Source: Chloropicon primus
Lineage: Eukaryota; Chlorophyta; Chloropicophyceae; Chloropicales; Chloropicaceae
Assembly: GCA_023205875.1 (NCBI GenBank)
Contig: CP060758.1
Coordinates: forward strand, 682,001 to 746,000
Length of the DNA: 64,000 bases
Reading direction: 5' to 3'
Under the pieces are notes generated by a model. That model saw nothing but the letters and a program-made list of their open reading frames with translations. It was not told the origin of the DNA and made no database searches. Shown here piece by piece: positions 1,821 through 58,938 of the stretch. Within the stretch, counting starts at the first letter, position 1. Every line of letters starts with the position of its first letter. Position numbers and translations under genes: made by a program.

Positions 1821-2561
1821 GGTGGTCTCCTATCGTGCTGGTTCTCCCTTCTCCACAGGTGAAGTGATCGATCGATCGGCGCTCCTGCCCTTCTCTCTCC
1901 CTCTTGGTTTTTTTTTTTGCGCTCCGTTTAACATGGATTTTCTACAGGAATTCGGCGGCGAACGAAGGGATTTTCTTCTGGCGGCGGAGTTTTGTGTATT
2001 TAAGTGTAAACACGGGGACACCGCAAAATGGTCCCCGAGGGGAAGAGAGAGAGAGAGACATCGTATAATTCCAAGATTGTCCCTGTGTCACAGAGAGAGA
2101 GAGAGAGAGGGGCAACCTGGATTGGTGTTGTGTGGCACGCTTGGGGGTGTACCTCGTCTTGATAGAGTCGAATTCATTGTGCCTGCTTTCCCACGCCGTT
2201 TGCGCTCTTCTTCTCCTTCTTCTTCTTCTTCAGAGAGAGAAAGAGAGAAAGAGAGAGAGAGACGGCTCCGGTCTTCCCTTTGTTCTCAGCAGAGGTCTGG
2301 GGACAGACGGGAGCAAGCCACTCGTTCCATCGGACTGCTGCGCTTCCTCCTCTTTGCGCCTCGCCTTGGAATTCCAAAATTGTCCCGTGGAGGTAGAGGG
2401 GAGGGGCCTTGATTGGTGTTGTGGGACGCTTGGGGTTGGGTGTGAGTTGGGAGGGGAAGTCGGGACGAGAGGTCTGCTCGAGGGCTTTCGAGTGGGTGGC
2501 CTTTGTCGACGGCGGCGTCGGCGTGGGAGGTGTTCTGGTTCACGTTCAGGGTGGTGACAAA
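1821..2561. other. Divergent promoter region, uS7 (-) and membrane protein (+)
   Basis: This 741-base stretch separates two divergent start codons. It contains a CGATCGATCG-type palindrome near 1865-1878, a TATTTAAG-like AT patch near 1996-2003, several GA tracts (2043-2058, 2089-2110, 2230-2262) with a CTT run before the last, and a diverged direct duplication (2067-2150 and 2370-2442, listed separately). Reading frames here are low-complexity and unconvincing as proteins. Confidence 0.5.
2067..2442 (+). repeat. Imperfect direct repeat, two copies of about 75-85 bp
   Basis: Copy 1 is 2067-2150 and copy 2 is 2370-2442, about 300 bases apart in the same orientation. Both run from AATTCCAARATTGTCCC through a GA/GGGG-rich middle to GATTGGTGTTGTG and an ACGCTTGGGG end. 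The middle differs because copy 1 carries an expanded GA tract. Both lie in the divergent promoter, so they may be duplicated regulatory sequence; that is inference. Confidence 0.7.
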
Positions 2562-4470: not shown

Positions 4471-4606
4471 CCTCGACCCGTTCCTCCGTCCTCGCCAGAA
4501 CGCCGTATCCTTCAAGCGACAGCTCTTTCGAAAGAGGAAGAGATGATGCTTCACCCTGTCCCACGAACCTCCCGTTCCAACCCACGTCCTCGTCGCCCCT
4601 TCCCTC

Positions 4607-4637
<31 letters not shown>

Positions 4638-4915
4638 CCCTCGCCGGTCGCCCGTTCAATTTTTTTCTCTCAAAAATCGACAGCTGCAGGTTAACGGGAA
4701 AGCAGCTGCAGGTTTTCGCTCCGCGAGGGAAACACAGGTGAGTGCAGCGACCAACAGAGGGGGTTTGAGCCACGGGGGTTGTGCTCACCGCACTTGTCGT
4801 GCCTTCCTCATTCCAACGAGCCTTCGCTCGGAAGAAATGAGCGAGTGGTGACGATTGAAGTTGACTGAAACACGAGGTGTGTCTTGACCTGTGAAGCGGA
4901 ATCAAGGTTGCTACC
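4471..4915. other. Divergent promoter, Yos1 (-) and ABC1 kinase (+), with (CT)n tract
   Basis: This 445-base gap separates two start codons. A (CT)n run with a few C interruptions spans about 4603-4642. Short direct words such as GCAGCTGCAGG repeat near 4681-4712. No gene is apparent. Confidence 0.5.
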
Positions 4916-7154: not shown

Positions 7155-9047
7155 ATGGAGGAGGCGCTCGACGAGCCGCTGCTGGAGGAGAGAAGGCGGT
7201 CGGGGAGCGCCTCGACGCAAGCCTCCAGGGAGGACGATGGTGCGGGGGTTAAGCGATGGACGATACGGAGAGTCGTGCTGCAGGAGAGCGCCTGGCTTGC
7301 GCTGGGTTGCGTCGTGCTCCTCATACGGATGCCGTTTTCGATCGCGATGCCGTACTTCCAGGCTCTCGTGCTCGCCAAGCTGGCGGGTCACGAGCGACAC
7401 GAGGTGTGGAGCACGATCAAGTTCATGGCGGGCGCCGGGTGCATTGATGCAGTCCTGGACTTCTGGTGCGTGTACCTCTTCAGCTACACCAAGAGCAGGC
7501 TGATCAAGAGTTTGCGTTTGAAGCTGTTCGAGAAGGTCCTGGCTCAGGAGATAGGATACTTTGACGTCACGCCATCTGGCGAGCTGTCGAGCAGGCTCAC
7601 GACCGACATCGCCACCCTGGCTAACGACATGACATGGGTGTTCAGGTTCTCCATCGAGGCGGTGGCCCGCATCTTGGGCGTCTCGCTCACGCTGTTCCAC
7701 ACCGACTGGAGGCTCGCCCTCGTCACTTGCACCGCCGTGCCTCTGCTCGCTGGGGCGAACAGGCTCTACTCCAAGTTCCTGAGGGAGAATGCGATCCGCG
7801 TGCAGGACAGCCTCGCCAAGGCGAACTCGGTCGCCCAGGAGGTCCTCTCTTGCTTCAGGGTGGTCTACTCGTTCGCGAACGAGAAATACGAGTACCAACG
7901 GTACCAGAAGGAAGTCTCGAAGAACTTCCACCTGAACGTGAAGCAGGCCATCATCGATGGGTTTTACTACATGTTCGTCTCCACCTTTCTCATGAACACT
8001 GCAGTGCGGGTTCTGATCATTGGGTACGGCGCCCACCTCTTCTTTGCTGGTGAAATTGACTTTGAGAAGCTCTCGAGGTTTGTGTTCTTCCTCGACATGC
8101 TGCAGAACTGGTGCAACATGTTGTTCGACTCGTTCAGCAACTTGATCAAGAGCGGCGGAGCAAGCGCAAAAGTATTCGAGATTCTCAACAGGACGGGAGC
8201 AGCGGGCCGCGGCAAGGGGGGTGCCGGCGATGACCGTCGTGGCGACGACGAGGGCGAGCCGCTGGATCAGAGGAATGATGCAGCGGGGAGCGGACAAGGC
8301 CACGTTGCTTTTGAGAACGTTCACTTCTCTTACCCAGCGAGGCCAGGGGATATCGTCCTCAAGGGCATCACCTTCGAAGCCGAAGCTGGCAAAACACTCG
8401 CAATCATCGGAAGGAGCGGAAGTGGAAAGAGTACATTGATTCACCTCATCGAAAACTTTTACCAGCCTTCCGCGGGAAGGGTGTTGCTTGACGGCCGCGA
8501 CGTTCACTCCTTCGAGCACACTCGCCTTCATTCGATCGTCTCGATCGTCAATCAAGACACTGTGCTGTTCGGGGGAACGATCTACGACAACATCACGTAC
8601 TCGGTTCACAACAGCGGGGAGCCTCTCCTGGCCAGGGAGCTCATGCCTCGCGTGGTGGAGGCTGCCAAGGTGGCCAACATCCACGACTTCATCTCGAGCC
8701 TGCCGGAGGGATACGATACGGAAGTGGGCGAGCGGGGCGTGCAGCTCAGTGGTGGACAGAGGCAGAGGATCGCGATTGCGAGGGCTGTCTTGATGAATCC
8801 CCGGGTCCTTCTTCTAGATGAGGCGACGAGCTCGTTGGACAACGAGAGTGAGAAGGCGGTCAAGGACGCGCTCGACCGGGTGATGGAGAATAAGACCGTG
8901 ATCGTGGTCGCTCACAGGCTGAGCACGATCATGAATGCCCACTCCATTCTCGTGATGGAGGACGGCGCCATCGTGGATTGCGGTCCGCCGTCCGGAATGC
9001 AAGACCGCCTGAGGAGCGGGGCGGCGGACATGGAGATACTAGAGTGA
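7155..9047 (+). CDS. ABCB-type half ABC transporter
   Basis: This single-exon gene encodes 630 residues with one transmembrane domain (about residues 35-330, six hydrophobic segments) followed by one nucleotide-binding domain. The NBD has Walker A GRSGSGKST at 419, signature LSGGQ at 531, Walker B VLLLDEATS near 552 with the D-loop SSLD after it, and the H-loop VAHRLS near 583. All catalytic residues look intact. Half transporters of this layout (TAP-like ABCB) work as dimers exporting peptides or small molecules from organelles or the cytosol. The N-terminus (MEEALDEPLLEERRRSGS) has an acidic dileucine-like LDEPLLEE motif more typical of endolysosomal or vacuolar sorting than of a transit peptide. 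Substrate cannot be told. TGTAA follows at 9099-9103. Confidence 0.95.
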   Translation: MEEALDEPLLEERRRSGSASTQASREDDGAGVKRWTIRRVVLQESAWLALGCVVLLIRMPFSIAMPYFQALVLAKLAGHERHEVWSTIKFMAGAGCIDAVLDFWCVYLFSYTKSRLIKSLRLKLFEKVLAQEIGYFDVTPSGELSSRLTTDIATLANDMTWVFRFSIEAVARILGVSLTLFHTDWRLALVTCTAVPLLAGANRLYSKFLRENAIRVQDSLAKANSVAQEVLSCFRVVYSFANEKYEYQRYQKEVSKNFHLNVKQAIIDGFYYMFVSTFLMNTAVRVLIIGYGAHLFFAGEIDFEKLSRFVFFLDMLQNWCNMLFDSFSNLIKSGGASAKVFEILNRTGAAGRGKGGAGDDRRGDDEGEPLDQRNDAAGSGQGHVAFENVHFSYPARPGDIVLKGITFEAEAGKTLAIIGRSGSGKSTLIHLIENFYQPSAGRVLLDGRDVHSFEHTRLHSIVSIVNQDTVLFGGTIYDNITYSVHNSGEPLLARELMPRVVEAAKVANIHDFISSLPEGYDTEVGERGVQLSGGQRQRIAIARAVLMNPRVLLLDEATSSLDNESEKAVKDALDRVMENKTVIVVAHRLSTIMNAHSILVMEDGAIVDCGPPSGMQDRLRSGAADMEILE

Positions 9048-9132: not shown

Positions 9133-9615
9133 TCAATCCGTCGTCGTCGTCGTGAATTCACCCGATTCGCTCTCTTCGAGCTTTTTGGTGAGCCTTTCCA
9201 CGAGCTTGCTGGCCTTCCCAGATGTCAGGGAGAGCTTCTTCTGCAAAGCCTTGCCCTTGCTCTTGAGCTTGGTCGTCACCCTCCTCTTGTCGCTCGCCTG
9301 GCCCACGAGGAACCCGTTTAGCTTGTTCTGGACTTGGTCGCTCGACTTTTGGATCCTTTCCTCCGTGCTCGTTCGGAACTTCCTCAGGTCCTCCCTGTGG
9401 GACCCGACGCTGGCCTGCAGCCTCGACTCTAAAGTCTGCAAGAACGTCTCCAGGTCCGCGGCGAACGTCTCATACGTTCGGTCGACGAGGCCTGAGCCCT
9501 CCCTTTTGGCGGGGCGCTTCTTCGCTTTGGAGAACTCCGCGGCCTTGGCCTTGGTCTTGGCCTGCGACCTCCTGCCTCCCTTCGCCCCGCTCTTCGAGTA
9601 ATACGAAGTCTCCAT
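9133..9615 (-). CDS. Lysine-rich coiled-coil protein, unidentified
   Basis: This 160-residue protein has a basic, Ala/Lys-rich N-terminal third (SGAKGGRRSQAKTKAKAAEF) and a helical, heptad-like remainder (residues about 45-150) ending in a run of threonines. I recognise no family; the basic tail plus coiled coil could suit a nucleic-acid or cytoskeleton-associated protein, but that is guesswork. The start chosen is the first ATG (9615). The frame stays open upstream to a GTG at 9669, inside the 44-bp tandem repeats. It is convergent with the ABC transporter, with only 85 bases between stops. Its upstream region is made of the tandem array. Confidence 0.65.
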   Translation of the reverse strand: METSYYSKSGAKGGRRSQAKTKAKAAEFSKAKKRPAKREGSGLVDRTYETFAADLETFLQTLESRLQASVGSHREDLRKFRTSTEERIQKSSDQVQNKLNGFLVGQASDKRRVTTKLKSKGKALQKKLSLTSGKASKLVERLTKKLEESESGEFTTTTTD

Positions 9616-9666
9616 GACTTTGTTTTGCCCCGCACGCACGGTCACCGCCCACTGCCTTGCACCGAT

Positions 9667-9943
9667 CACTGCCCACTGCCTTCACCGACTGCCTTCACCG
9701 ATCGACCGATCACTGCCCACTGCCTTCGCCGACTGCCTTCACCGATCGACCGATCACTGCCCACTGCCTTCGCCGACTGCCTTCACCGATCGACCGATCA
9801 CTGCCCACTGCCTTCACCGACTGCCTTCACCGACTGCCTTCACCGATCGACCGATCACTGCCCACTGCCTTCGCCGACTGCCTTCACCGATCGACCGATC
9901 ACTGCCCACTGCCTTCACCGACTGCCTTCACCGATCGACCGAT
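9667..9943. repeat. Tandem repeat array, 44-bp unit, six copies
   Basis: Units begin at 9667, 9711, 9755, 9799, 9856 and 9900. Five are 44 bp, and the fourth is 57 bp because its internal 13-bp subunit (CCGACTGCCTTCA) is present once more. Each unit holds CACTGCCCACTGCC, then the subunit words, then the near-palindrome ACCGATCGACCGAT. Units differ mainly at one base (TTCACC or TTCGCC). All frames are open through the array but give only low-complexity peptides. It sits between the divergent starts of the coiled-coil gene (9615) and CYP97C (10148). Confidence 0.95.
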
Positions 9944-10088
9944 GGCAGTAACCGATCGAAAACCACCCTGCACCTTATCCAGAATTGGAGGTCGAGGTCG
10001 GAGCAAGGAGGCGCCTTGGACCGAAGTTTGGGAGGAGAGTGGCGGGAGCAGAGAGTTGGGGAGGGCGCGATCGCGTTGAACGGAAGCG

Positions 10089-10137
10089 CGTCTCAAGGAC
10101 CTTTCGTTTGAGACCTCGCTCGACCCGTTTGGACGAG
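10089..10137 (+). promoter_or_regulatory. Dispersed upstream element, copy E (CYP97C)
   Basis: This is a diverged copy of an element also found upstream of UFSP2 and Timeless. It starts CGTCTCAAGGAC, then TTTCGTTTGAGACCTCG, and ends near GTTTGGACGAG. It ends about 10 bases before the CYP97C ATG, in the gene's orientation. It matches the other copies best over CGTCTCA and ACCTCG and is weaker in the 3' half. Confidence 0.5.
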
Positions 10138-10147
10138 AGGTGAGGCC

Positions 10148-11902
10148 ATGACGGTGACGAGAAGCTGGGCACCAAGGGGTGGGGTGGTGGTGGGCACCCA
10201 GGTGAAGCCGAGGAGGGCGCGAGTGGAGGGGCGGAGGGAGAGGCGGTGGCCGGGAGCGAGGCGCTCCACGGGGGCGGAGGAGGGAGCATCGATTGCCGTG
10301 GACGGGGAGGAGGAGGAGGAGTACGTGCCACCGGAGGTCACGATTGACACGGACGGTGCCGGGAAGTCGTTCATCAGTCCGAGGTGGCTGACGGAGCTCG
10401 GCAGGTTGTGGGGAGGGGCTTCGGACGTTCCGGTGTGTGAAGCGGCCCCGGAAGACGTGCAGGATCTGCTCGGCGGGGCTCTGTTCCAGGCTCTGTACAG
10501 GTGGATGCTTCAGACGGGCTCGATTTACCTCCTCCCGACGGGGCCAATATCGTCTTTCCTGATCGTCTCGGAGCCCGCTGCGGCGAAGCACATCCTGCGC
10601 TCGAGCGACAACACGAAGAGGAACATCTACGGTAAGGGCCTCGTCGCGGAAGTGTCGAAGTTCCTGTTTGGGGACGGGTTCGCTGTGGCGGAGGGTCAGC
10701 TGTGGACCGCCCGAAGGAAAGCCGTGGCGCCCTCGTTTCACAGGGCGTACTTGGAGACCATGGTGAACAAAGTCTTCGTCCCGAGCGCCCAGCTGCTGAA
10801 CGAGAAGCTGAAGAGGGAGAGGGGGAGGCAGGTCGACATCGAGTCGTGCTTCTCGCAGCTCACCCTTGACATCATCGGGAAGGCGGTGTTCAACTACGAC
10901 TTTGACTCGCTGACCACGGAGTCGCCGGTGATCCAGGCCGTGTACACGGCGCTCAAGGAGACGGAGCAGAGGGCCACAGACCTCTTGCCGTACTGGAAGC
11001 TGGGCCCCCTGGTCGCCCTGGTGGACTCGAGGCAGAGGAAGGCCGCGGAAGCCGTGCGGATCATCCGGGAGACCACGGAGGAGCTCATTGACAAGTGCAA
11101 GAAGATTGTCGAGGAGGAGGAGAGGCGGGATGGCCAGAGGCAAGAGGTTGGCGAGGACTACATCGACGAGGCGGACCCCTCCATTCTGAGGTTTCTCATT
11201 GCGGCGAGGGACGAGGTCTCCTCCATGCAGCTCCGGGACGACCTGCTGTCCATGCTTGTCGCGGGGCACGAGACCACCGCCAGTGTGCTCACCTGGACGA
11301 TTTACCTGCTCCTGCAGAACCCAGAGTGCATGAAAAAGGCCGTGGAGGAGGTGGACTGTGTCCTGGAGGGAAGGAAGGTTCCGACCTACGAAGACCTCAA
11401 GGCCTGCCCTTACATCCTGAGGTGCATCAGCGAAAGCATGAGGCTCTACCCCCACCCCCCCGTGCTCCTCAGAAGGGCACTGATGGACGACAAGCTCCCC
11501 GGGGGCCAGTTTGTGCCAAAGGGTCAGGACATCATCGTCTCCGTCTACAACATCCACCACAGCCCGGAAGTTTGGGATGAGCCGGAGGCCTTCAAGCCCG
11601 AGCGATTTGATCTGGAGAAGCCTCCGCCGAACGAGATAAACACCGACTTCAGGTACATTCCCTTCAGCGCTGGCCCCCGCAAGTGCATCGGAGACCAGTT
11701 CGCTTTGCTCGAAGCCCAAGTCGCTCTGGTGGTTCTCTTGAGGGAAATGGAGCTAGACCTCGTGCCGGACCAGAAGATCGAGATGACGACGGGTGCAACG
11801 ATTCACACGAAGGACGGTCTGTTCGTGACGTCCAGGGAGAGGGCGGCTGCTGGGGCAGTCCTGCAAAGGACGGAGAAGGAGGGGACGCAAGTTGTACAGT
11901 GA
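10148..11902 (+). CDS. CYP97C: Cytochrome P450 CYP97C-type, carotene epsilon-ring hydroxylase
   Basis: This single-exon gene encodes 584 residues. CYP97C (LUT1) hydroxylates the epsilon ring of alpha-carotene on the way to lutein in plastids. The sequence has the CYP97C hallmarks [54 protein letters not shown] and TDLLPYWK. The oxygen-binding I-helix AGHETT is at 372, the ExxR motif ESMR at 429, and the heme loop [11 protein letters not shown] has its cysteine ligand at 513. The first 60 or so residues are Arg-, Ala- and Gly-rich, then acidic, consistent with a chloroplast transit peptide. CYP97A and CYP97B are less likely, because the LLGGALF and TDLLPYWK blocks fit C best. TGTAA follows the stop at 11920-11924. 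Confidence 0.93.
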
Positions 11903-11980
11903 AAATAAGAAAGAAGACGTGTAACATAAGCTTACTTAGAACTTTCCTCCTCTGTCAACACCGGGGCGCCGCCTCGGGAC

Positions 11981-12569
11981 TTAGGCTTTGAGGATGGGCT
12001 TTCCCTGGGCGTCCAGGGGCCAAGGGTTCCCGTCCACGTCCACCGGCTTGTCCAACTTCACGAGTTGAGGCTTGGACCACGCGTGCTTCTTGACGAAAGC
12101 CCACTCCACGGGCTTCCCGAAATTCTTCTTGAAGTTGTCCGTGAAGATTCTCTGCGCCTCGCGGAACTCCGGGGTCGAGAAGGAAAGGCGAGGGTCCTCG
12201 TGCTTCCTCAGGTCCTCCAGCTGCGCGCACCAGCACGTGCGTGGCGTCCAAAAAAAAAAACGGGAGCTCGTCGTCAGAAGTGCTCGAAAGAGAGAGAGAG
12301 AGAGAGAGACGCGGACGGGCACGGGGTGGGCACCGGAAAGGCGGACGTACCTTCTTCACGTGGCGGCGCATCTCCTCCAGAAGCGACATCTGCTCCTTGT
12401 CGTTCTTGTCCACTTTCTCCTCGAACTCAGCCTAAAAGAAGAGAGAGAAACCTCGGTCAGACAAACGCAACCCTACCCACCAAAAAAAAAAAAAAAGGAA
12501 AGAAAAAAAACATACCAGCTTGTCGACATCATTCTGACCGAAGTTATTTCCAACAAACTTGCCCGCCAT
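11981..12569 (-). CDS. Small unidentified protein, 124 residues, three exons
   Basis: Exons are 12516-12569, 12351-12431 and 11981-12220, joined by GT-AG introns of 84 and 130 nt that fall between codons. The protein begins MAGKFVGNNFGQNDVDKL, has a charged helical middle (EKVDKNDKEQMSLLEEMRRH) and a C-terminal half containing FRE-AQRIF, FGKPVEWAFVKKHAW and DVDGNPWPLD. There is no membrane segment and no obvious long targeting peptide. The tidy in-frame splicing and the conserved-looking Trp/Pro motifs suggest a real gene. It resembles small accessory subunits of organellar complexes in size and charge, but I do not recognise the family. It is convergent with CYP97C, 78 bases between stops. 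Confidence 0.75.
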
Positions 12570-12840
12570 GGTCTCTCGTCCTCGCGCAACACAACCTCTC
12601 TCTCTCCCTCTCTCTCTCCGTCGCCGAAGCCCCTTCCGTTTTCTCCTCCTCGACGAAACGGTTTTCGAGCGTTTTGATTTTACACTAACTTGTTTCACCG
12701 AACACAGAGAGAGAGCGCGCGCTTCGCACTGCCAATTGCGGGGGCCGGCGACAGAGGACGGGAGTGGCGTCGCTTGTGGAGGACCTTGTTCGAGGACGGT
12801 GGATGTGAAGGGGTGGTGGTGTTGAGAAAACGAAAGGTCA

Positions 12841-12886
12841 TCTCACGTTCTTTCGATTGATACCTCGGCTGAAGGTTTTGGCGAAA
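12841..12886 (+). promoter_or_regulatory. Dispersed upstream element, copy A (UFSP2)
   Basis: This copy has TCTCACG, then TTCGATTGATACCTCGG, then GAAGGTTTTGGCGAAA. It lies 274 bases upstream of the UFSP2 ATG in the gene's orientation. The 3' half is identical to copy B and nearly identical to copy C upstream of Timeless. Confidence 0.7.
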
Positions 12887-13021
12887 GGAGTGGTCCCTTT
12901 GAGAGGAACATATCTCCTGCCTAAAGACAGAGGAAGGTGGAGTGGTGGTGCTGTTTGTCGAGGAACTTGTGCGAGGACGGTGATGGTGGAGTGGTGGAGG
13001 TGTTGAATGAACGAAAGGGCG

Positions 13022-13067
13022 TCTCACGATCGTTCGATTGATACCTTGGCTGAAGGTTTTGGCGAAA
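13022..13067 (+). promoter_or_regulatory. Dispersed upstream element, copy B (UFSP2)
   Basis: This copy has TCTCACG, then TTCGATTGATACCTTGG, then GAAGGTTTTGGCGAAA, and lies 93 bases upstream of the UFSP2 ATG. It differs from copy A at only a few positions. Confidence 0.7.
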
Positions 13068-13159
13068 AGGTGTGACGGGAAAACGTCCTTGCGGACAGAC
13101 GAGGAGAGGAAGCAGGCTCGTCGTCTCGTCGAGCGAGCAAGTTTCAGTTTTCTGTTCAG

Positions 13160-14968
13160 ATGGCGGTTGTGGTAAAGGTGGAACAAGCCGTGTGGGATCA
13201 GATCGATGAGATGGGGAAGGAGTCCGTCGACGGCCGAGGCCAGAGCGAGGCCGGGACGGAAAGGGTGTTTCTCTTGGGTGCGCCACGCTCGGATGACACG
13301 GTCGTCGTCGTCGCAGGAGCCATGAGGGTTGCTGTCGCCGACGACGAGCTGAGCTGGTCAGGCGCGGTGTCTGAGATCGTCACGGTGCTCCCCGTTGGGA
13401 TGGCGTGCGTGGGACTGTGCCACTTGGGCGGCAAGGGGGCGGGATCCAGCGTGTTGGAAACCGTTCGCAAATGCGTTCCGAGCAACACGGGCTGTGGGAA
13501 GTTCTGCGTCCTGTTCGTGAGCGCAAGCGATTCCATCCGCCAAGGCCAGTGCCTTGACGTCGGCTCGAAGGCATTCGACGAGCTTGACGCGGAAGTGCAA
13601 ACCGCTGCCGACCAGGCCAAGACCTCGTGCGGGTACCTGCGTTGCACGCTCGACCTCCCCCTTCAGATGGTCTACAAAAAGGAGGAGGAAAGGGGCAAGG
13701 CAATCGACAGGACGATCGAGGACGTGACCAGAAACATCGAGTCCAACGAATTTGAGTTCTTGTACAAGCTGAAGAAGGGGGGTGAGGAGGAGGAAGGCTA
13801 CCGAACGGGCTTCTTCGCAACTTCCCTCGCTGCTCTTTCTGACGAAAGCGATATGGTGGGGACTCTGGAAGAGCCGCTCGACCTTGAGCTGTACACCTCA
13901 TCGAGCGGGGCCCCGCCCATCGCTCCGGTTGTGCGTTACGAGCCTGCAAGCGACACCGCGTTTGAGTGCGAGACGATTGACCTGCACCTGAACGCGCTCG
14001 TGATGCTGCCAAGGGAAGAGGAGTTCACAAAAGTTCGGGGGAGCGTGATCGAGAAGCTTGTGGCGCAGCTGGAGGCGGCCAAGAAGATGCTGGTGGCGCA
14101 TCCGAACGAGAAGCGATTCAAGTACTGCCACTATTCCCCGGACCTGCTCTCGTATGTGGTGAGCATCCTTTACCCAGACGTTGGATCAGATGAGATGAGG
14201 TTGTTCAAGAGGAGGCAGGCCCTGCACAGGCAGCTTCTCCTGCCACTTGACAGGCCGCTCATACGGCTTTCCAACGCGATGAGCTCAGGGGCGAACAGCT
14301 CCTTTGCAAAGAAGTTGATGGACGTGCACAAGGCCTTGAAATCCTCCGGGGTCAAGGGCGGAAAGCAGTCCTTGGTGAAAGGAACCTACTGTTACTTCCA
14401 TTACATGCAGGACAGGTTTGACGATGCTGGTTGGGGGTGTGCGTACAGGTCGCTGCAAACGATCATATCTTGGTTCGTTCTGAACAACTACACGAACCGA
14501 AAGATTCCTGGACACAGGGAGATCCAGCAGACCCTGGTGAGCATTGGCGACAAACCTGCAACCTTTTTGGGGTCAAAGCAGTGGATAGGGGCGATTGAGA
14601 TTTCTTTCATCCTTGACACCCTGCTCGACATCTCTTCCAAGGTCATAACTTTTAACTCTGGAGCGGAGATACCCACCAAGGCCAGGGAGATCGCACACCA
14701 CTTTGAGACGCAAGGGACCCCCATCATGATCGGTGGGGGTGTTTTGGCCTACACCCTGCTTGGCATAGATTATAACGAGTCAACAGGAGAGTGCGCGTTC
14801 CTGATCCTCGACCCGCATTATACGGAGGGGGAGGACATTGATAAGATCTGCGCGGGCACCTGGGTGGGCTGGAAGCGCCTCGGGGACAACGCTGCAGCAG
14901 GTGGAGACCTCTTCGTTAAGACGGCGTTTTACAACTTCCTCTGCCCGCAGCGCCCCAACACCGTGTGA
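13160..14968 (+). CDS. UFSP2: UFM1-specific protease 2 (UFSP2, peptidase family C78)
   Basis: This single-exon gene encodes 602 residues. UFSP2 is a cysteine protease that matures the ubiquitin-like modifier UFM1 and removes it from targets, mainly at the ER. The C-terminal C78 domain (about residues 405-600) shows the nucleophile in DDAGWGCAYRSLQT (Cys427), the GSKQWIGAIE block, the IGGGVLAYTLLG segment, and the catalytic DPHY motif (Asp551, His553). The N-terminal 400 residues correspond to the variable UFSP2 N-terminal region that serves substrate or ER binding. All catalytic residues look intact. ATG 13160 is the first in frame. TGTAA follows at 15003-15007. It is convergent with the endonuclease gene. 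Confidence 0.95.
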   Translation: MAVVVKVEQAVWDQIDEMGKESVDGRGQSEAGTERVFLLGAPRSDDTVVVVAGAMRVAVADDELSWSGAVSEIVTVLPVGMACVGLCHLGGKGAGSSVLETVRKCVPSNTGCGKFCVLFVSASDSIRQGQCLDVGSKAFDELDAEVQTAADQAKTSCGYLRCTLDLPLQMVYKKEEERGKAIDRTIEDVTRNIESNEFEFLYKLKKGGEEEEGYRTGFFATSLAALSDESDMVGTLEEPLDLELYTSSSGAPPIAPVVRYEPASDTAFECETIDLHLNALVMLPREEEFTKVRGSVIEKLVAQLEAAKKMLVAHPNEKRFKYCHYSPDLLSYVVSILYPDVGSDEMRLFKRRQALHRQLLLPLDRPLIRLSNAMSSGANSSFAKKLMDVHKALKSSGVKGGKQSLVKGTYCYFHYMQDRFDDAGWGCAYRSLQTIISWFVLNNYTNRKIPGHREIQQTLVSIGDKPATFLGSKQWIGAIEISFILDTLLDISSKVITFNSGAEIPTKAREIAHHFETQGTPIMIGGGVLAYTLLGIDYNESTGECAFLILDPHYTEGEDIDKICAGTWVGWKRLGDNAAAGGDLFVKTAFYNFLCPQRPNTV

Positions 14969-15085
14969 GGGGGGCGTTCTCGGAAGGCCTATTCTCGCCA
15001 AGTGTAAACAAAACTCGTGTATACATATATATAAATCCATTTGTTACTTGTTGGTTGACAATTTTGATTCTTTCCTCCCCGAGCA

Positions 15086-16285
15086 TCAATACTTGACCGT
15101 CATCGCAACGGGGCAGTGGTCACCAAAGTCGGCGCAAACATCCCCGACAATGTAAGCGTCAGCCAGTTGCACCGGTGAGGCCCCATTCACCATGGATTCA
15201 GACACCAGCGTGTAGTCGAGACGCAGTCCCCTGTTGTGTGGCCTGTTTCTGGCTCTGATGGACCAGAAGGTGTAATTGCCCTTGACCGAGGGGTGAAAGT
15301 GCCTGAAACCGTCCACGAGGCCGCCGTCAAGCATGGCAGAGAACGCATTCCTCTCTCTCGTTGTGGTGCCAGCGTTCTTCTCCAAGTGCTTCGCGTCGGG
15401 GTTCCAAATATCCTCGTCCAAGTGAGCCACATTCATATCCCCGAGGTACGCCACGGGCTTTTCCTCCTCGAGCTTCGCGATGTATGCCCTCATGTCTCTC
15501 TCCCATGTGTCGAGCCTGTAGTCTATCCTCTTGAGCCCGGCACCAGAGTTTGGCACGTACGCCACCACGACGTAGAGATTGGGTTTCTCAAAATTCAGGG
15601 TGATCACCCTTCCCTCTCTGTTATATTCCTCGGCCAGGGGAGGGATGCCCAAGCCCCTGTGGCAGGACTTGATCTCGAACCTGTCCAAGCTCTCTTCCGG
15701 GGTGGACACCTCCACACTCTTGTTTTTCATGGAGCTGGGCCTCATCGCCCCCAAGACCTCCTCTTTCAGCAGGGCCACAACACCGCTGTAGCCTTTCTTC
15801 TCCGCGCAGTTCCAGATCGCCCTGTACCCCGGCAAGAGCTTGAACAAATCCTTTTCAGCTGTCTGGAGGGCATCGCCTGGCTGGAGCTTGTGCTCGGCAA
15901 GGAAGATCACCTCGGGCCTGCTGGTCGACTCTACCAGTTTCTCCAGGAGCTCAGATCGCTTGTCCAGCGTTGCACGCAAGCTCCCGACGTTCCAGAAGGC
16001 GACGTTGAAGCCTCTCTCGCCCTCTGGCAGGATCTGCCGCGGCGCGGCATCAGGCTGCACAAACTTGCTCTTCTCGTCCTTGGCGGGGGCCGACGCCTTC
16101 TTCTGCTTCTTCTTCGTGTCGCCCCCCTTCGCCCCCTCCGCCCCCTCGCGCTTCAACGCCATCACGCACACAGAAAAGGAAGGCGCAACCGCCTCTCTCG
16201 TCCCTACCGTCCGTCGACTTGCCTTGATCCACTTGCTGTGAGTCCGACAACTTGTCACGCACCTCGCCAACCTCCTCGCCAGCAT
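15086..16285 (-). CDS. APE1-type AP endonuclease (exonuclease III family)
   Basis: The gene encodes 399 residues from ATG 16285, or 358 from the alternative ATG 16162. This enzyme cuts the backbone 5' of abasic sites in base excision repair. The catalytic domain follows a lysine-rich linker (KKKQKKASAPAKDEK). Seen in order are FNVAFWNVGSLRA, the metal-binding glutamate in FLAEHKLQ, GYSGVVALLK, YVPNSGAGLKRIDYR, GDMNVAHLDEDIWNP, FWSIRARN.PHNRGLRLDYTL and the terminal DFGDHCPVAMTVKY with the catalytic Asp-His pair. The usual NVDGLRA reads NVGSLRA here, a variation next to the metal site. Residues 1-45 from the upstream ATG are Arg/Ser/Cys-rich without acids, suiting an organellar targeting peptide, so dual starts are possible. 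The frame is open further 5' but without ATG. Confidence 0.92.
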   Translation of the reverse strand: MLARRLARCVTSCRTHSKWIKASRRTVGTREAVAPSFSVCVMALKREGAEGAKGGDTKKKQKKASAPAKDEKSKFVQPDAAPRQILPEGERGFNVAFWNVGSLRATLDKRSELLEKLVESTSRPEVIFLAEHKLQPGDALQTAEKDLFKLLPGYRAIWNCAEKKGYSGVVALLKEEVLGAMRPSSMKNKSVEVSTPEESLDRFEIKSCHRGLGIPPLAEEYNREGRVITLNFEKPNLYVVVAYVPNSGAGLKRIDYRLDTWERDMRAYIAKLEEEKPVAYLGDMNVAHLDEDIWNPDAKHLEKNAGTTTRERNAFSAMLDGGLVDGFRHFHPSVKGNYTFWSIRARNRPHNRGLRLDYTLVSESMVNGASPVQLADAYIVGDVCADFGDHCPVAMTVKY

Positions 16286-16611
16286 ACAGGCCCTCCCTCG
16301 ACCCACAACCAACAACCAACAACCAACAACCAACAACTCGAAACCGTTATCGTTATGTCTGAACCAAACCAAACCGAAACCAAAACCGACCTTCGTTCAG
16401 CCCTCGACCCACTCCACCGCGGTGATGCAAACACCGCTTCGTGCCCGCCACCTCCAGCGAAAGAGAGAGAGAGAGAGAGTTGTGCGCTGGTGCGAGTGGA
16501 TGGATGGATTGGAGTTCGGGGGTGCTTGCTTGATTCTCTCGGGACACAGAGATACTCAGTGAAGTGTGTGCGTTTGTGCGTTGGTTTGGCTGACGGACGG
16601 TGGTGAGAGGA
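16286..16611. other. Divergent promoter with AACAACC repeats and (GA)n
   Basis: This gap has short AACCAACAACC tandem words at about 16310-16338, CCAAACCAAACCGAAACC at about 16362-16385, and a (GA)n tract at 16463-16480. No gene is apparent. Confidence 0.45.
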
Positions 16612-17010
16612 ATGATAGAGACGGTTCTGGCGTGCAGGGACAAGGCGTTCGAGGAGCTCGTGGAGGCCAAGCGGAAGGGCCTGGGGAAGGAGGAAGTGGA
16701 AGAACTCGTGAAGAAGTTTCGAGCGTCTTCCGAGAGGCTGGAGGAGCTCCTGGTGAGGCTAGAGACGGGAAGCGAGGGGGTTTCGCTTTCGAAGGAGGAG
16801 CAAGACCTCGCGGACAAGCTCAAGGCCAAGATCGAGGTGATCGACAAGGCCAGGGGGGTTATCGGCAGCTGGGACGACAAGCTGGAGGCTCTGATTGCGG
16901 AAAAGGAGGAAGTGCTGAATAAAGTAAGTATGGCTGTTCAACGGGGTTGGTTTACTCCGAATCCGAATCGAGCATGGCGATCTGACTCTTCCTCTTGTCC
17001 GCAGGTGTAA
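16612..17010 (+). CDS. Small coiled-coil protein, unidentified, overlaps Timeless 3' end
   Basis: The unspliced frame from ATG 16612 gives 132 residues. The first 105 are strongly helical and charged (EELVEAKRKGLGKEEVEELV, RLEELLVRLE, LIAEKEEVLNK), with no recognised family. A perfect donor (GTAAGT at 16924) and an acceptor (CCGCAG ending at 17004) would splice LNK to GTG-TAA, ending the protein at ...EEVLNKV and removing the odd tail VSMAVQRGW. That 81-nt intron's acceptor would lie inside the antisense Timeless coding region, whose stop is at 16952. Either way the two transcripts overlap tail to tail. The spliced form seems likelier because the read-through tail loses the coiled-coil composition. 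Confidence 0.6.
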   Translation: MIETVLACRDKAFEELVEAKRKGLGKEEVEELVKKFRASSERLEELLVRLETGSEGVSLSKEEQDLADKLKAKIEVIDKARGVIGSWDDKLEALIAEKEEVLNKVSMAVQRGWFTPNPNRAWRSDSSSCPQV

Positions 17011-20000
17011 CGTGCTCTTCGAGGGCATCGTCTTCTTCCACGTCGTCGTCTTCGAACATCATGGGAGCTGCAGCAGTGGCTTCGGGCTGGGACAAGTTCT
17101 TCTTCGTGATCCTGTGCTTCTTTGCCAGTCTCTTTGCCGCGGAAGGGGGCGTCTTGTTCTTCCTGGATTTGGTTGGGCTCGCGTCACCGTCGTCGCTCCC
17201 GACAACCCCAGGACTCGCGGGTTCGGCCCTCGGATCAGCCTCTGCTGCTTCGTGCCGTTCCGTGGGTCGCGCCCCTTCCCCCTCCGTGGAAACGCCAGGA
17301 TCCGCCATGGTCTCGTCTTCCGAGGGCTCCAAGGTCTTGCCACCAGCGCTATTCTCGTGTTCTGAGGCCTGTCTTTCCTCGTCGTCAGAAGAAGACTCGT
17401 CCTCGGAAACTCCGCCTTCGGCATCAGAATCGGAATCGCCCAACTCCCAGGGAGACGCCTTTGCCTTTCCACCGTCCTCCTCATCCGAGCTGTCCTCATC
17501 CGAGCTGTCTGCCAGCTTGGTGATCTTTCTCCTCTCCAGTCCATGCTTTTTGAGAAGCCTCTTGATCTGAGCCTTGGTAAGGCTTCCATCCATTTCTGCC
17601 TCGATGTCCTCCATAAAAGTGGCACTGGTCTGATGCTTCTCAAAAGCTGACTTAAGCTTCTCGACCTGCTCCCCAGTGACCTTGGCCCTCTTCGGACCTT
17701 CTTCCTTCTCCATCAAGCCCATCAGCCTCAGCTCACTACCCAACCTACGCGTGGTGTACTTGAAGTCCAGTCCTTCTGCAATCACCTTCATTCGTTTCTT
17801 ATCGCCCTTGTGCTTGTCCCACAACTCCTTGAGCTTCTCCAGCTCCTCCTCTGTCAGTTTGCTCTTCGGTTTCTTGGCTTTGGATTTAACGGCCAAGCCC
17901 AACCTCTTCAACTCCGTCCTCAGCTGGCGAGGTTTGAACCTAAAGTTCATCTCTTCGACGAGGCAATCCACCAAATCCTCGCGGTCCTTGAACTTGTCGT
18001 ACGCCTCCTTGAGCTCCTCCTCGTCCCCTTCTGTGAATGCCTTGGATGCAGAGGGCGCGAGCTTGTCTATGCTCTTCAAGATCCCTGCTCCGCAGGCCTC
18101 GTCCTCATCCGCAAGGGCCTTCCTGATCGCCTCGCGGTGAGCGTACTTGTTGTGCCAGCCATACTCGTCCCTCAGCATCTCCGCGTCCCGCTTGTTCTTC
18201 CAGAAAAGCAAGTCGACAAAGGTGATGCGAGCGAGAGATGTCTTGGCTGTCTTCTGGAAGCTGTCCATATCCTCTGTCAGCTCTGGCAGAAGCCGGTCCA
18301 TCAGCTTCCTAGTGATGTACTTGCAGATTTGGATCAGGGATGAGAAGCTCGCGTTCCCGCTGATCGAAGTGTCCGACAGAATCTTCTCCATCACGAGGAG
18401 GAAGGACAAATGCCAGACGCACGGCAAGAGGTTCAAGCTATCCGGCAGAACTATCCTTTTCAGAATTCCCACGACGCTGCTGTTCAACTGCTTGCTATTG
18501 CTCTTGTAGTTCTCAAGAACAAATGTCAGCGTGTTGATCAGCAAGGGAGCGGTGAGCTCTTGAGAAAGCCTGTGGTTGACATCGAACGTGGATTCCTTCA
18601 ACGCCATTCTCCCATCGCTGTCAGTTTCGCTTTCGTTCTCGAGCAGCTCCAACGGAGCCATGCGTTGGCTCTTGTTCTGTTGCGGCGAGGCATTCCCTTT
18701 CTCCGCCTCCTTGCCCGCAATTGCGTCATCGCCGTCGGGCTTGTCCGCTGCTGCGGTACCCTTGCCACCGTCATTCTCTTCACCTGCCTTGGCTTGTTCC
18801 TCACCCTTTCCGTCATTTGCCGCGACGTCTTCACTAGGATTCTTCTCCTTGGGTTCCCCCGCGCCCAGCTCGTTCGCATCATCCACCTCCTTTGCGTTTT
18901 CGCCCTCCCCTTTCGAGCCAGCATCCGTTTTGCTCTGGACACGCCTTCTCGAAGCGCGCTGCCTCACGATGAATCCACCCCTCTCTGTCTTGTCAAGCCT
19001 CTCGAACGTGTGGATGATGATGTACAGAGCCTCCATCATGTCGCCGGCCTGGCTCTTGGGCTGGTTCTTCATGTTGTAGCTCTTGATCATCCTGCACAGG
19101 AGGGGGAAAAGCCCGGACTGCCTCAAGTCGTCGTGCAAAAGTTTCCTCTGCAACTTGTCCGCAGCTTTTTTGTCCGCCTTTGTTCCGATGCGGTAGGCCA
19201 GGTCTAGCACGTACATCATCTCCTTCAACAGCGCCAGAGACGATGCCTGGAGATCCCAGTCCTTCTCGTCTGACCTGGTAGGGATCTCGATCTGGTGCTG
19301 CCAGACCGTAAGCAGCAAGTGAAACATGTCCCAGCCCATCGTCGAGCTGATCTCGGAGAAGGGCGAGGTCCCCGTGGCCTCGTATTTCTCGTGGAGCTCC
19401 TTTGCGTCGATTTTTTCCATCTTCAATTTCTTGTACGAGGTGCAGAACCAGCTGAGTTTGAAGAACCTGATGTAATCCTCCTTCTCCAGCCTCGAGATGC
19501 CGATGCCGTGCATCAGCTCGGGTCTGATCGAGTCCATCAGTATATCGTAGCCTCCCTGCAGGAAATTGTCCGCGAAGGTGACGAGAAGGTCCCTCAGGTC
19601 GTCGCTCATGGGGTATAGCGCTCTCTCCTGAGCCGCTTTCCCCCTCTTGCCGCTGGGCTTGTAGGTCTGCTCATCTCTCTCCGCGCTTGGCTTGGAGGAC
19701 CTCTGCGTGAAAACCACGTGTTGCGACACGTCCTTGTACTTCTTGACAAACGTGCCGCTGAAGAGCCTGTGCCGCATGGGGAGGTTGCTCCTGCTCGTGA
19801 CCCTTGCCCTCTGCTCTGACAGGAGCGCATTCGCAAGGTCTCCCCTCAGTTTCTCGCTCTTTCTGTCGTGCTGCGCTGCCTTCCTGGTGCCCTTCCTTGC
19901 CCTCTCGGACCCCTTGGCGCCGGCGGCGGGGCTCGACCTCTTCTGGAACAGCTGGAGCGGGCTGAAACCCTCGAAGATTTGGTAGATGATGTGCAAAATA

Positions 20001-20692
20001 AGAGGGGCGTCGTTCTTGAACGCCTTCTCGTTGCAGTGCTGCGCGACCAGCATCACCAGCTCCAGGACGTTGTCCTTGAAGAGCCTCAGGATGAGGTTTC
20101 CCTTCCTCTCGTCCTCGGCCCCGGCCAAGGTCGCGGCCGCGTTGTCGATCCCCAAGTCCCTCGCGGAGCTGTCTATGCAAAGCAGGTTCCTCACGAAGGC
20201 CAGGACGAGCTGCACAACCAGGATGTCTTTCTCCGACAGCCGGGGGTACCTCGACAGGGGCCTCGAGAGCAGGCCGACAATCACGGCGACTGCGTCGTTC
20301 GCCAAGAAGCACTCCTTGATGCGGTTCAAGCTCTGGCACTGCATGTAAAGCGAGTCAGAGGTCGGGTCTATCGGCATGGTGAGAAACGTCAGGATCTTCA
20401 GCGCGTTGTACACTATGTCCTGGTCCTCCTGGTACTGCACGATCAGCGGCACGATGTCCGTGGACACCAGGTCCCACTGCACGAGGCGGTGGAAGACGTC
20501 CCTGCTAAAGGGATCGTCCCTCCTCAAAAACCGCTGCAAGTCCTTGAGACATTCCAGGCAGTCGCTATCCTTCCTGTACACGTTCGCTTCCTCGTCGAAC
20601 CGACCCAAACCCCCCGCCACGGATATCAGCAAATCCTCGTCCTGAAGACGCCGCGCCCTCACCCCGTCCACGTGCCCTTCCACCTTCGCCAT
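16952..20692 (-). CDS. TIMELESS: Timeless/Tof1/Swi1 replication fork protection protein
   Basis: This single-exon gene encodes 1246 residues. Timeless works with Tipin at replication forks, stabilising stalled forks and helping checkpoint signalling and sister cohesion. The N-terminal TIMELESS domain (about residues 10-280) contains LQRFLRRDDPFSRDVF, YNALKILTFLTMPIDP and VLAFVRNLLCI, and the middle has VKKYKDVSQHVVF and SYKKLKM. A low-complexity acidic linker near 590-700 leads to a second conserved helical region (about 720-1060) with QLRTELKRLG and TTRRLGSELRLMG, the Timeless C-terminal part. The tail (1080-1246) is very acidic and serine-rich with basic patches. The start used is ATG 20692; the frame continues upstream to a TTG without support. 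Two copies of the dispersed element lie upstream. It overlaps the coiled-coil gene at its 3' end. Confidence 0.93.
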   Translation of the reverse strand: MAKVEGHVDGVRARRLQDEDLLISVAGGLGRFDEEANVYRKDSDCLECLKDLQRFLRRDDPFSRDVFHRLVQWDLVSTDIVPLIVQYQEDQDIVYNALKILTFLTMPIDPTSDSLYMQCQSLNRIKECFLANDAVAVIVGLLSRPLSRYPRLSEKDILVVQLVLAFVRNLLCIDSSARDLGIDNAAATLAGAEDERKGNLILRLFKDNVLELVMLVAQHCNEKAFKNDAPLILHIIYQIFEGFSPLQLFQKRSSPAAGAKGSERARKGTRKAAQHDRKSEKLRGDLANALLSEQRARVTSRSNLPMRHRLFSGTFVKKYKDVSQHVVFTQRSSKPSAERDEQTYKPSGKRGKAAQERALYPMSDDLRDLLVTFADNFLQGGYDILMDSIRPELMHGIGISRLEKEDYIRFFKLSWFCTSYKKLKMEKIDAKELHEKYEATGTSPFSEISSTMGWDMFHLLLTVWQHQIEIPTRSDEKDWDLQASSLALLKEMMYVLDLAYRIGTKADKKAADKLQRKLLHDDLRQSGLFPLLCRMIKSYNMKNQPKSQAGDMMEALYIIIHTFERLDKTERGGFIVRQRASRRRVQSKTDAGSKGEGENAKEVDDANELGAGEPKEKNPSEDVAANDGKGEEQAKAGEENDGGKGTAAADKPDGDDAIAGKEAEKGNASPQQNKSQRMAPLELLENESETDSDGRMALKESTFDVNHRLSQELTAPLLINTLTFVLENYKSNSKQLNSSVVGILKRIVLPDSLNLLPCVWHLSFLLVMEKILSDTSISGNASFSSLIQICKYITRKLMDRLLPELTEDMDSFQKTAKTSLARITFVDLLFWKNKRDAEMLRDEYGWHNKYAHREAIRKALADEDEACGAGILKSIDKLAPSASKAFTEGDEEELKEAYDKFKDREDLVDCLVEEMNFRFKPRQLRTELKRLGLAVKSKAKKPKSKLTEEELEKLKELWDKHKGDKKRMKVIAEGLDFKYTTRRLGSELRLMGLMEKEEGPKRAKVTGEQVEKLKSAFEKHQTSATFMEDIEAEMDGSLTKAQIKRLLKKHGLERRKITKLADSSDEDSSDEEDGGKAKASPWELGDSDSDAEGGVSEDESSSDDEERQASEHENSAGGKTLEPSEDETMADPGVSTEGEGARPTERHEAAEADPRAEPASPGVVGSDDGDASPTKSRKNKTPPSAAKRLAKKHRITKKNLSQPEATAAAPMMFEDDDVEEDDALEEHVTPADKRKSQIAMLDSDSE

Positions 20693-20720
20693 CGTGTTCC
20701 TCCCCTCTGCTCCGCTCTTC

Positions 20721-20762
20721 CACGAACGACCAGCAAGGTGCCGATCGAAAGACCTCGAGACC
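20721..20762 (-). promoter_or_regulatory. Dispersed upstream element, copy D (Timeless)
   Basis: On the minus strand this reads GGTCTCGAGGTC, then TTTCGATCGGCACCTTG, then CTGGTCGTTCG. It is the weakest copy in its 3' half and ends 29 bases before the Timeless ATG. Confidence 0.45.
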
Positions 20763-20870
20763 CTAGCCCGACGACCCAAGCCGCACCTCCTCTCCGTGTG
20801 TGCGAACCCGACTAAATGCGATCGATCGGTGCGCTCCCCTCCCTCTGCTCCGTTCTCAGGCGACTCCGCA

Positions 20871-20916
20871 CGCCAAAACCTTCGACCGAGGTATCAATCG
20901 AAAACCCTTGAAACGC
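20871..20916 (-). promoter_or_regulatory. Dispersed upstream element, copy C (Timeless)
   Basis: On the minus strand this reads GCGTTTCAAGG, then TTTCGATTGATACCTCGG, then GAAGGTTTTGGCG. It lies about 180 bases upstream of the Timeless ATG and is nearly identical to copies A and B over the last 33 bases, some 8 kb away. Confidence 0.7.
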
Positions 20917-21266
20917 TCCTTCGATCTATCGACCCCTCCGTCCCAACTCTCCCTCCTCGGAGGCGTCCCCTTCCCCTCTCTCCCCCGCTCCGATCGATCG
21001 TCGCGATTGACAGGTGCCAAAAAAGGGGTTTGGTTTTTTGGCGGGTAGTTGAGTCAAGCCCGCGAGAGAGAGAGAGAGATCTGGTTGGTTTGGGGGCGAA
21101 CGATCGATCGGCGATCGTAAAGGGAGGGAGGGGCACGAGAGGGGGAGAGAGGTTGTCTCCCGATCGTGTTCTGTGTCGGGTTTCCTTTCTTTTTCTTTGA
21201 ACAACAAGTAGCGTTCATTCATTTGTTCATTCATTCAATCATTCTCTTGTTGGGCTGTTGTTCGCC

Positions 21267-29172: not shown

Positions 29173-29189
29173 TCGCCACTGCTAGCCAG

Positions 29190-43077: not shown

Positions 43078-43363
43078 ATGGCAAGCAGTGCAAGCTCCCG
43101 AAATCAGAACAACAAATTGACACTAGCCCTTCCGCCCCCCCCTCCTACATCCTCTTGGACTCGTTCCACCAAAAAGGGACGAAGTCTCCTCCCGGCGCGC
43201 GGCCCCTCCACTGCTTGATTCGAAAACCAGCCTGTCCCCAGGCAGAGGGGGAGGGAACGGCGCAATGCGAGCAATGGAGGGCTCGGTGAATGAATGAATT
43301 CTTTTTTACATTACGCTTGGCACGCCTCGCTGCTCGTGCCTCGACGGGTCCCGACCCTTGCTG

Positions 43364-58000: not shown

Positions 58001-58938
58001 CACTTTGCGGGGTTCTCCACCTTTGGGTCCAGCGGATACTCGTACACAAACTCGTCCTTGTCCATCTTGTCCCCGGACAGGAGGTGGCCAATGCTCTCCT
58101 TCATGGCGGGGTGCTGGGCCATGGTGGAGAACCACCTCGACAAGCAAGGGAACTTCTTCGCCTTGTCCTTCTTCTTGAGCATGTAAAGGAAGTAGATCGA
58201 CAAGTCCACGAAGAGAACGATGTCGGCCAGGGTCATGAAATCGCCCACGAGGTACGTGGACTCGCGGAGCTTCGTCTCCATAGCATTCAAGTAGTCGTTC
58301 ATCTTCTTCCTCAGCTCGACGTTCTCCCTCTTGTCCCCCTTCTTGAAGCCCAAGAGCAGGTCAAAGACGTCCTTCACCGTCAGGAAGAGCTCGCAGTCGA
58401 TGTCCAGCCAGCAGTCCACGAGGGCACGGGTCATCGGGTCCCTGGGGTACACGGGCTTGCTCGACACGGCATACTCGTTCTTTCCAGTGCTAAGCCTGCT
58501 CAAAGACTCGTTGCAAAGGTACCTGCAGATGGCATTGCTCTCGACTATCGAGCCGCCCTCAACCTCGAGCGTGGGAACCTGTCCGCGAGGGTTGCGCTCA
58601 AGAAAGGAGGGCGTCGCGTTCGTCTATTTGTTGTTGTTGTGTTGGTGGTGGGTGGTGGTCGGTCCGAATCCAAAAGACCAAAAAGGGGGAAAACAAAAAG
58701 CGAAAAAGCGAAGAGAACGCGGTCAGTTTCCTCGCAAGGGCGTCGACGACCCGACCCGAGGCGGGAGCCACTGCGCCCCGCCCCGGAAGAGAAACCGCAA
58801 GGGGCTCCCTCCTCCCCGATGACTTACCAGTCCGAGCACGACAGGTTTCTCGACCACATCTTTCCACGTCCCGTTCACAAGCGCCGCCGCTTTTATCTTA
58901 TACAGAGACGGTCCCAGCGCGTACAAGGTGTACACCAT
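55087..58938 (-). CDS. Alanyl-tRNA synthetase with N-terminal GST-like domain, two exons
   Basis: Exons are 58828-58938 (37 codons, MVYTLYALGPSLYKIKAAAL...) and 55087-58623, with a 204-nt GT-AG intron falling between codons; the protein is 1215 residues. Residues 1-200 form a full GST fold: the N-half has TNATPSFLERNPRGQVPTLE and SIVESNAICRYL, as in eEF1B-gamma, and the helical C-half has MTLADIVLFVD. AlaRS follows from about 235 (GARTRQAFLDFFELKGH): KCIRAGGKHNDLDDVG, HHTFFEMLGNWSFGDFF, NFWEMGDTGPCGPC, the editing-domain HTCTHLL and CGGTHLANT, and a C-Ala domain. All class II motifs are intact. The fusion is unusual for AlaRS. It probably lets the enzyme join other GST-bearing factors. It is convergent with the DYAD-like gene, 45 bases between stops. 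Confidence 0.94.

What the first reader, a model, noticed from the sequence alone, without database searches (positions are those of the whole stretch)
10089..20916. A conserved upstream element shared by CYP97C, UFSP2 and Timeless
Seen: five copies of a 45-55 bp element, at 10089-10137, 12841-12886 and 13022-13067 on +, and 20721-20762 and 20871-20916 on -. All lie upstream of a gene and in its orientation, ending 10-275 bases before the ATG. Copies A, B and C are near-identical over TTCGATTGATACCT and GAAGGTTTTGGCG, and earlier share an ACGAAAGG-like word and GCGTYTCA. C is 8 kb from A and B. D and E are weaker. UFSP2 and Timeless each have two copies. Inference: a gene-class promoter or 5'-UTR element, or a short dispersed repeat that landed in promoters. 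Timeless is an S-phase gene, so cell-cycle control is one guess; CYP97C and UFSP2 do not clearly fit that.
Basis: partly seen in the sequence, partly recalled or inferred. Interest (0 to 1): 0.8.

Follow-up and report, generated by a model that had tools for sequence, protein, structure and literature searches.

The report
Shared promoter element in green alga
A stretch of about 45 to 60 bases recurs just upstream of several unrelated genes in this probable green-alga DNA, always pointing towards the gene, which suggests a shared promoter or leader element, although an old mobile repeat cannot be ruled out without the whole genome.

Summary
A ninth, upstream of ATG 2562, is only possible. Left out of the model one at a time (B and C together), A, B, C, E, F and G score above all 60 shuffles; D and H do not. 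Comparing 23 upstream regions without the motif gives the same family as the strongest signal, beside a few GA-rich pairs. All eight copies are non-coding, sense to the next gene and 12 to 276 nt from its ATG. None was accepted between 24.2 and 64 kb, a clustering that a genome-wide promoter class does not explain by itself. Best reading: a composite promoter-proximal or leader element with dyad symmetry. Rivals: an old dispersed repeat, or a 5'-UTR RNA element. E2F and nitrate-element ideas are not supported. The organism is inferred to be Chloropicon primus or close kin. No whole genome was held, so the decisive test could not be run.

The parts
12828..12889 (+). copy B, distal copy upstream of UFSP2 (core ends 276 nt before ATG 13160)
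13009..13070 (+). copy C, proximal copy upstream of UFSP2 (95 nt before ATG); B and C lie in a 123-nt direct repeat of 83% identity, 181 nt apart
20866..20927 (-). copy E, distal copy upstream of Timeless (178 nt before ATG 20692)
20712..20767 (-). copy D, proximal weaker copy upstream of Timeless (25 nt before ATG)
   Evidence: weak when left out and no pairwise support
10077..10140 (+). copy A upstream of CYP97C (12 nt before ATG 10148), one extra base in the spacer
   Evidence: P450 identity
   Evidence: Yos1 Pfam match
   Evidence: weak when left out; gene
   Evidence: below the best shuffle in the ungapped scan; gene
2461..2525 (+). possible ninth copy I upstream of ATG 2562; only its 5' half (2464-2498) fits
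   Evidence: E 1.6 to 4.8 where listed before inclusion, E 19 with the longer model

Best explanation
A family of composite cis-regulatory elements placed near the transcription start or in the leader of a subset of genes. Shown: a conserved block of about 60 nt with the words CGAA(A)G, (G)TCTCA, CTTTCGA, TCG-TYGAAGG and GGCG; orientation towards the gene; position 12 to 276 nt before the ATG; 7-nt arms (GTCTCAA ... TTGAKAC type) around a spacer of usually 10 nt that tend to change together between copies. Inferred: a dimeric DNA-binding factor, or an initiation complex, reads the two arms and the central CTTTCGA, so that genes carrying the element are expressed together or start transcription in the same way. 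Second copies at UFSP2 (B/C, a tandem duplication) and Timeless would raise occupancy.
For: Copies outside the training set beat shuffles: F and D in the ungapped scan from B, C, E; A, B, C, E, F and G in the leave-one-out scan. In a comparison of 23 upstream regions that does not use the motif, 6 of the 8 sense-sense pairs scoring 17 or more are pairs of this family (17 to 38), with a best of 16 among 500 shuffled pairs. 8 of 8 copies are non-coding and sense to the next gene; a random non-coding, random-strand placement meets this with probability 0.341, so 6 of 6 loci gives 0.0016 (the 300-nt limit was chosen after seeing the data and the gene map is mine). Apart from the B/C tandem repeat, significant pairwise similarity covers 29 to 93 nt and does not run into the genes. 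Arm covariation on 7 of 8 copies (H left out): 77.6% paired against 66.2 +/- 3.2 in shuffles and covariation score 0.299 against 0.126, each 0 of 500 as high, best register at slide 0; on 8 copies, own arms match better than swapped arms, permutation p 0.00085.
Against: Accepted copies lie only between 4.5 and 23.9 kb: 6 of 11 genes starting in 4.4-24.2 kb against 0 of 12 examined beyond (Fisher p 0.0034 was computed with 0 of 13, boundary chosen after the fact). A genome-wide promoter class should not cluster like this. D and H fail the leave-one-out test, and A and G are below the best shuffle in the ungapped scan. Only 11 of 27 usable copy pairs align better than 300 shuffles. The target genes share no obvious function. 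Distance to the ATG varies more than 20-fold. Two measures of arm covariation are not striking: pairs changed on both sides (41 of 500 shuffles as high) and further pair types (148 of 500). The arms were noticed first and tested afterwards, and the copies are related, so few independent events stand behind the covariation. No transcription start, expression or binding data.
Confidence: 0.5

Rival explanations
1. An old short dispersed repeat (non-autonomous mobile element or fragments of one) that spread locally and survived where insertion does no harm, that is in upstream regions.
For: Accepted copies cluster in 20 kb; by eye two subfamilies (A, B, C, D, E against F, G, H) look like repeat lineages (alignments); B/C is plainly a local duplication. 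A longer model of the same eight copies matches them over 103 to 112 of 113 columns, so weak similarity reaches about 45 nt further upstream.
Against: All eight copies are sense to the gene. Pairwise alignments stop at different places, so no sharp common ends. No terminal repeats or target duplications were noticed, but they were not searched for systematically.
Confidence: 0.28
2. A structured element in the 5' leader of the mRNA acting on translation or RNA stability.
For: Copies lie 12 to 276 nt from the ATG in sense orientation, so some are probably transcribed. The arms covary as in a stem. Short hairpins in D, E and H are better than shuffles (z -4.19, -2.72, -2.27). The hairpin TTTCGA...TYGAAGG pairs in 80% of cells in its own register against at most 54% when slid (7 copies).
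Against: Whole copies fold no better than shuffles (z -0.39 to -0.83 in 5 of 5 tested, A to E). The short hairpin is ordinary in B, C, A, F and G (z -0.94 to +0.24) and shows no covariation (80.0% against 79.7% in shuffles, 0 pairs changed on both sides); D uses a shifted register by eye. The consensus fold is weak (-0.99 kcal/mol). The stem that covaries is not the predicted one. No Rfam family.
Confidence: 0.13
3. Local duplication and gene conversion only: one ancestral upstream region copied to its neighbours, without function now.
For: Clustering in 20 kb; B/C tandem copy.
Against: The shared stretch does not extend into the genes; copies stand at six separate genes, all in sense orientation.
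Confidence: 0.07

Closest known systems
Oomycete initiator plus flanking promoter region (Inr/FPR) core promoter element
   Same: A promoter element upstream of a large share of unrelated genes (37% of P. infestans genes; passages of PMC3520976); here 6 of 23 upstream regions.
   Different: Different lineage and sequence; the element here is longer (size of Inr/FPR recalled, not looked up); relation to transcription starts unknown; clustered in this window.
Nitrate-responsive cis-element (NRE) bound by RWP-RK/NLP factors
   Same: Semi-palindrome with arms around N10; copy F reads CTCTT-N10-AAGAG, near the published TGRCYCTT-N10-AARRGGCA (passages of PMC13170786). C. primus is reported to have nine putative RWP-RK genes (passage of PMC6731263).
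   Different: By reading, only F of eight copies fits; the other arms are mostly CTCAA...TTGAK; no nitrogen-assimilation gene is among the carriers.
Introners / introner elements of green algae
   Same: Short sequence family repeated at several genes; a GTGAGT donor-like word precedes G and H.
   Different: No such donor-like word within 130 nt before the other six copies; none lies in a coding intron. The word Chloropicon occurs 0 times in the main text of the Introner survey PMC9860276.
E2F site (TTTSSCGC, recalled)
   Same: TTTTGGCG at the 3' end of B, C and E.
   Different: Absent from the other five copies.

Membership tests
Gene-oriented promoter/leader element | non-coding, upstream, same orientation as the gene | tested here: met
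   8 of 8 copies
Gene-oriented promoter/leader element | fixed relation to transcription start | not testable with these tools
   no transcript data held
Gene-oriented promoter/leader element | spread over the genome | tested here: inconclusive
   no genome held; within the window accepted copies only at 4.5-23.9 kb, plus a possible one at 2.5 kb
E2F site | TTTSSCG word in each copy | tested here: not met
   3 of 8 copies
RWP-RK nitrate-responsive element | YCTT-N10-AARRG arms | tested here: not met
   by reading, 1 of 8 (F) in the alignments; consensus
Introner | lies in a spliced intron with shared splice sites | tested here: not met
   donor-like word before 2 of 8 copies, at different distances (-55, -71); acceptor sites were not tested and no transcript data are held
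Mobile element (MITE-like) | sharp ends with terminal repeats and target duplications | tested here: inconclusive
   pairwise alignments end at different places; no systematic search for target duplications
Structured RNA | better folding than shuffles and covarying stem | tested here: inconclusive
Oomycete-type Inr/FPR | initiator at the start site with flanking region downstream | not testable with these tools
   no start-site data

The most novel reading that the evidence does not exclude
An unusually long (about 60 nt) composite, direction-fixed promoter element in a chlorophyte alga that marks a class of genes, perhaps in chromosomal neighbourhoods, read by an unknown dimeric factor whose two half-sites change together from gene to gene.
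Probability: 0.25. Interest if true: 0.6.

Novelty: new member of a known kind. Interest (0 to 1): 0.42.

Why it matters
Six literature searches (seen as listings) showed no description of such an element, and the held main texts of the two Chloropicon genome papers contain the word promoter zero times. A long element shared by unrelated genes would give a handle on co-regulation in these picoplanktonic green algae and a candidate part for expression constructs. If it is a repeat instead, it is an example of a mobile sequence settling in gene leaders of a compact genome. Both readings hinge on the organism being Chloropicon or near it, which is inferred.

Tried and rejected
Pol III/tRNA-derived repeat: ARAGORN finds no tRNA in the window, Rfam has nothing at gathering score and two sub-threshold matches in 4.3-24.2 kb that do not overlap a copy; the B-box-like GTTCGATT of copy C (recalled motif) is not shared by the others.

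Upstream word CGAAAG pairing with CTTTCG: 77.1% paired, the same as shuffles. Forming it together with the GTCTCA/TGAGAC arms as a pseudoknot was dropped on geometry by hand, not by a tool.

Hairpin TTTCGA...TYGAAGG: no covariation.

Finding the element or its genes elsewhere: patterns in viral contigs, 0 matches. In prokaryote genome contigs one match; by hand about 0.03 such matches are expected by chance, yet the place is an ordinary coding frame in a 40-45% GC bacterial contig of Methylophaga (read by eye as thiL), so it was taken as chance. UFSP2, CYP97C and sialyltransferase queries in viral contigs: 17, 8 and 11 stretches matched a peptide pattern, none was confirmed.

First local alignments used loose gap costs and ran into meaningless long alignments; discarded, repeated with stricter costs. 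In one search the D-E pair was left out of my count because the two segments overlap.

Sub-threshold sites not accepted: 59154-59167(+) upstream of the M32 gene (E 1.1-4.5; 0 to 62 of 300 shuffles as good, depending on the copy); 29108-29175(+), E 0.39 with the 113-column model only, antisense to the gene starting at 29172; 7499-7544(+), 11.5 bits, inside the ABC-transporter frame.

Full report
Observation. TTCGATTGATACCT is exact three times in 64 kb, and GAAGGTTTTGGCG is exact in the same three copies. B and C lie in a 123-nt direct repeat of 83% identity, 181 nt apart.

More copies. A 46-column matrix from the three strong copies (B, C, E), scanned over both strands, gave as next hits 4501-4546(-) at 19.7 bits, 20718-20763(-) at 17.9, 7499+ at 11.5, 23845+ at 9.6 and 10089+ at 9.4; the best of 200 dinucleotide shuffles was 17.1, so only the first two stand out in this ungapped scan. 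The 4501 and 23845 hits resemble each other and lie upstream of genes; 7499 lies inside the ABC-transporter reading frame and was dropped. A gapped model of the seven then showed an eighth at 4805-4839(+) at E 0.11. With all eight in the model, the next hit is E 1.3. Leave-one-out E-values, B and C being left out together, were 6e-9 (B), 2e-7 (C), 9e-9 (E), 9e-7 (F), 1e-4 (G), 1.5e-4 (A), 0.11 (H) and 0.31 (D). Against 60 shuffled windows, A 17.5, G 18.2, F 24.6, E 30.9, B 31.3 and C 26.5 bits exceed the best shuffle (10.7 to 15.1), whereas H 8.4 and D 7.0 do not (best shuffles 12.2 and 11.4). H is backed by its pairwise match to G (score 21, best of 300 shuffles 13). D is backed only by the matrices of B, C and E (17.9 against 17.1 over 46 columns, 23.5 against 20.5 over 28).

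Pairs. Of the 28 pairs of copies, D-E was set aside because the segments overlap; 11 of the remaining 27 align better than all of 300 shuffles (A-B, A-C, A-E, B-C, B-E, B-F, C-E, E-F, F-G, F-H, G-H; the E-F alignment lies upstream of the core), and D has none.

A ninth, at 2461-2525(+), was E 1.6 to 4.8 where listed before inclusion and E 19 with the longer model. It matched B and D better than all of 300 shuffles, A, C and E better than all but 2 to 4, and F, G and H not at all. Even when included it fits only over 2464-2498 (13.7 bits). It is listed as possible only. The 113-column model also gives 29108-29175(+) at E 0.39, antisense to its neighbour, not accepted.

Check without the motif. 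The 350 nt upstream of 23 genes were compared all against all after masking simple repeats, 500 comparisons; the best shuffled pair scored 16. Eight sense-sense pairs scored 17 or more: six are of this family (UFSP2-Timeless 38, CYP97C-Timeless 27, Yos1-ALO 26, CYP97C-UFSP2 23, ABC1-ALO 21, Yos1-ABC1 17) and two look like GA/GAC-rich low complexity (HisPhos-g45592 20, MON1-g45592 18). Four sense-antisense pairs did: three come from the divergent neighbour at 12569, whose upstream region contains copy B, and one (12569-g45592, 19) looks like low complexity. Six of the 15 possible pairs among the six carrier genes therefore pass; Yos1-UFSP2 reaches 16.

Place. The core of each of the eight copies is outside coding sequence and sense to the next gene; distances to the ATG are 25 (F; 30 with the corrected ATG), 73 (H), 12 (A), 276 (B), 95 (C), 25 (D), 178 (E) and 220 (G). 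A random non-coding place on a random strand would meet this with probability 0.341, six of six loci with 0.0016 (300-nt limit chosen after the fact). Genes: Yos1, ABC1 kinase, P450, UFSP2, Timeless, ALO oxidase. Against a plain promoter class: 6 of 11 genes that start in 4.4-24.2 kb carry it, and 0 of 12 examined beyond; the Fisher value 0.0034 was computed with 0 of 13 and a boundary chosen after the fact.

Anatomy. The nine-row consensus is roughly CGA--G--C-TCTC--G-TCTTTCGA--GA--C-TCG-T-G-A-G---TGG. On seven copies (H left out), 7-nt arms around CTTTCGA pair in 77.6% of cells against 66.2% in shuffles (0 of 500 as high), with the peak at the unshifted register and 5 cells changed on both sides (1 of 500 as high); the number of pairs changed on both sides (3; 41 of 500) and of further pair types (5; 148 of 500) is not striking. 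On eight copies own arms match better than swapped arms (5.12 against 3.95 of 7; permutation p 0.00085). The copies are not independent, and the arms were noticed before they were tested. Two other stems show no covariation. Whole copies do not fold better than shuffles (A to E, 5 of 5); short hairpins are strong in D, E and H and ordinary in the other five; the consensus fold is weak.

Organism. The P450 is CYP97C-like, which points to a green alga or a cell with a green-algal plastid (recalled). GC is 57.85%. C. primus is reported at 57.4-57.5% GC, about 0.5 introns per gene, 0.5 genes per kb, and 59 sialyltransferases (PMC12301720 section 6; PMC6731263 section 6); most genes recognised here are single long frames and one is a family-29 sialyltransferase. 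Chloropicon primus or close kin is an inference, not a match by sequence.

Reading. A gene-oriented composite promoter or leader element is preferred at 0.5. An old dispersed repeat (0.28), an RNA leader element (0.13) and pure local copying (0.07) remain. The E2F idea fails (3 of 8 copies), and the nitrate-element likeness holds for F alone by reading. Papers: of PMC12301720 the outline, section 6 and passages were seen; of PMC6731263 section 6 and passages; of PMC13170786, PMC9860276 and PMC3520976 passages only; all others as search listings.

Noticed in passing
9584-9987: Tandem array with a 44-nt period (ten overlapping matches of a 127-nt reference) directly upstream of copy A and CYP97C.
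   Followed up: no
55087-58938 (-): Cytosolic-type alanyl-tRNA synthetase with an N-terminal glutathione-S-transferase-like domain.
   Followed up: no
61204-64000 (+): Protein joining a PHD-like zinc finger to an AAA ATPase domain.
   Followed up: no
4738 and 23774: GTGAGT donor-like words 55 and 71 nt before the cores of copies H and G; G is followed by a pyrimidine-rich CACAG near 23953, so a 5'-UTR intron holding the element is possible there.
   Followed up: partly
43364-44953 (-): Family-29 sialyltransferase, one of a family reported as large in Chloropicon.
   Followed up: no
40159-43122 (-): Slo/BK-type calcium-activated potassium channel gene in a probable picoplanktonic alga.
   Followed up: no
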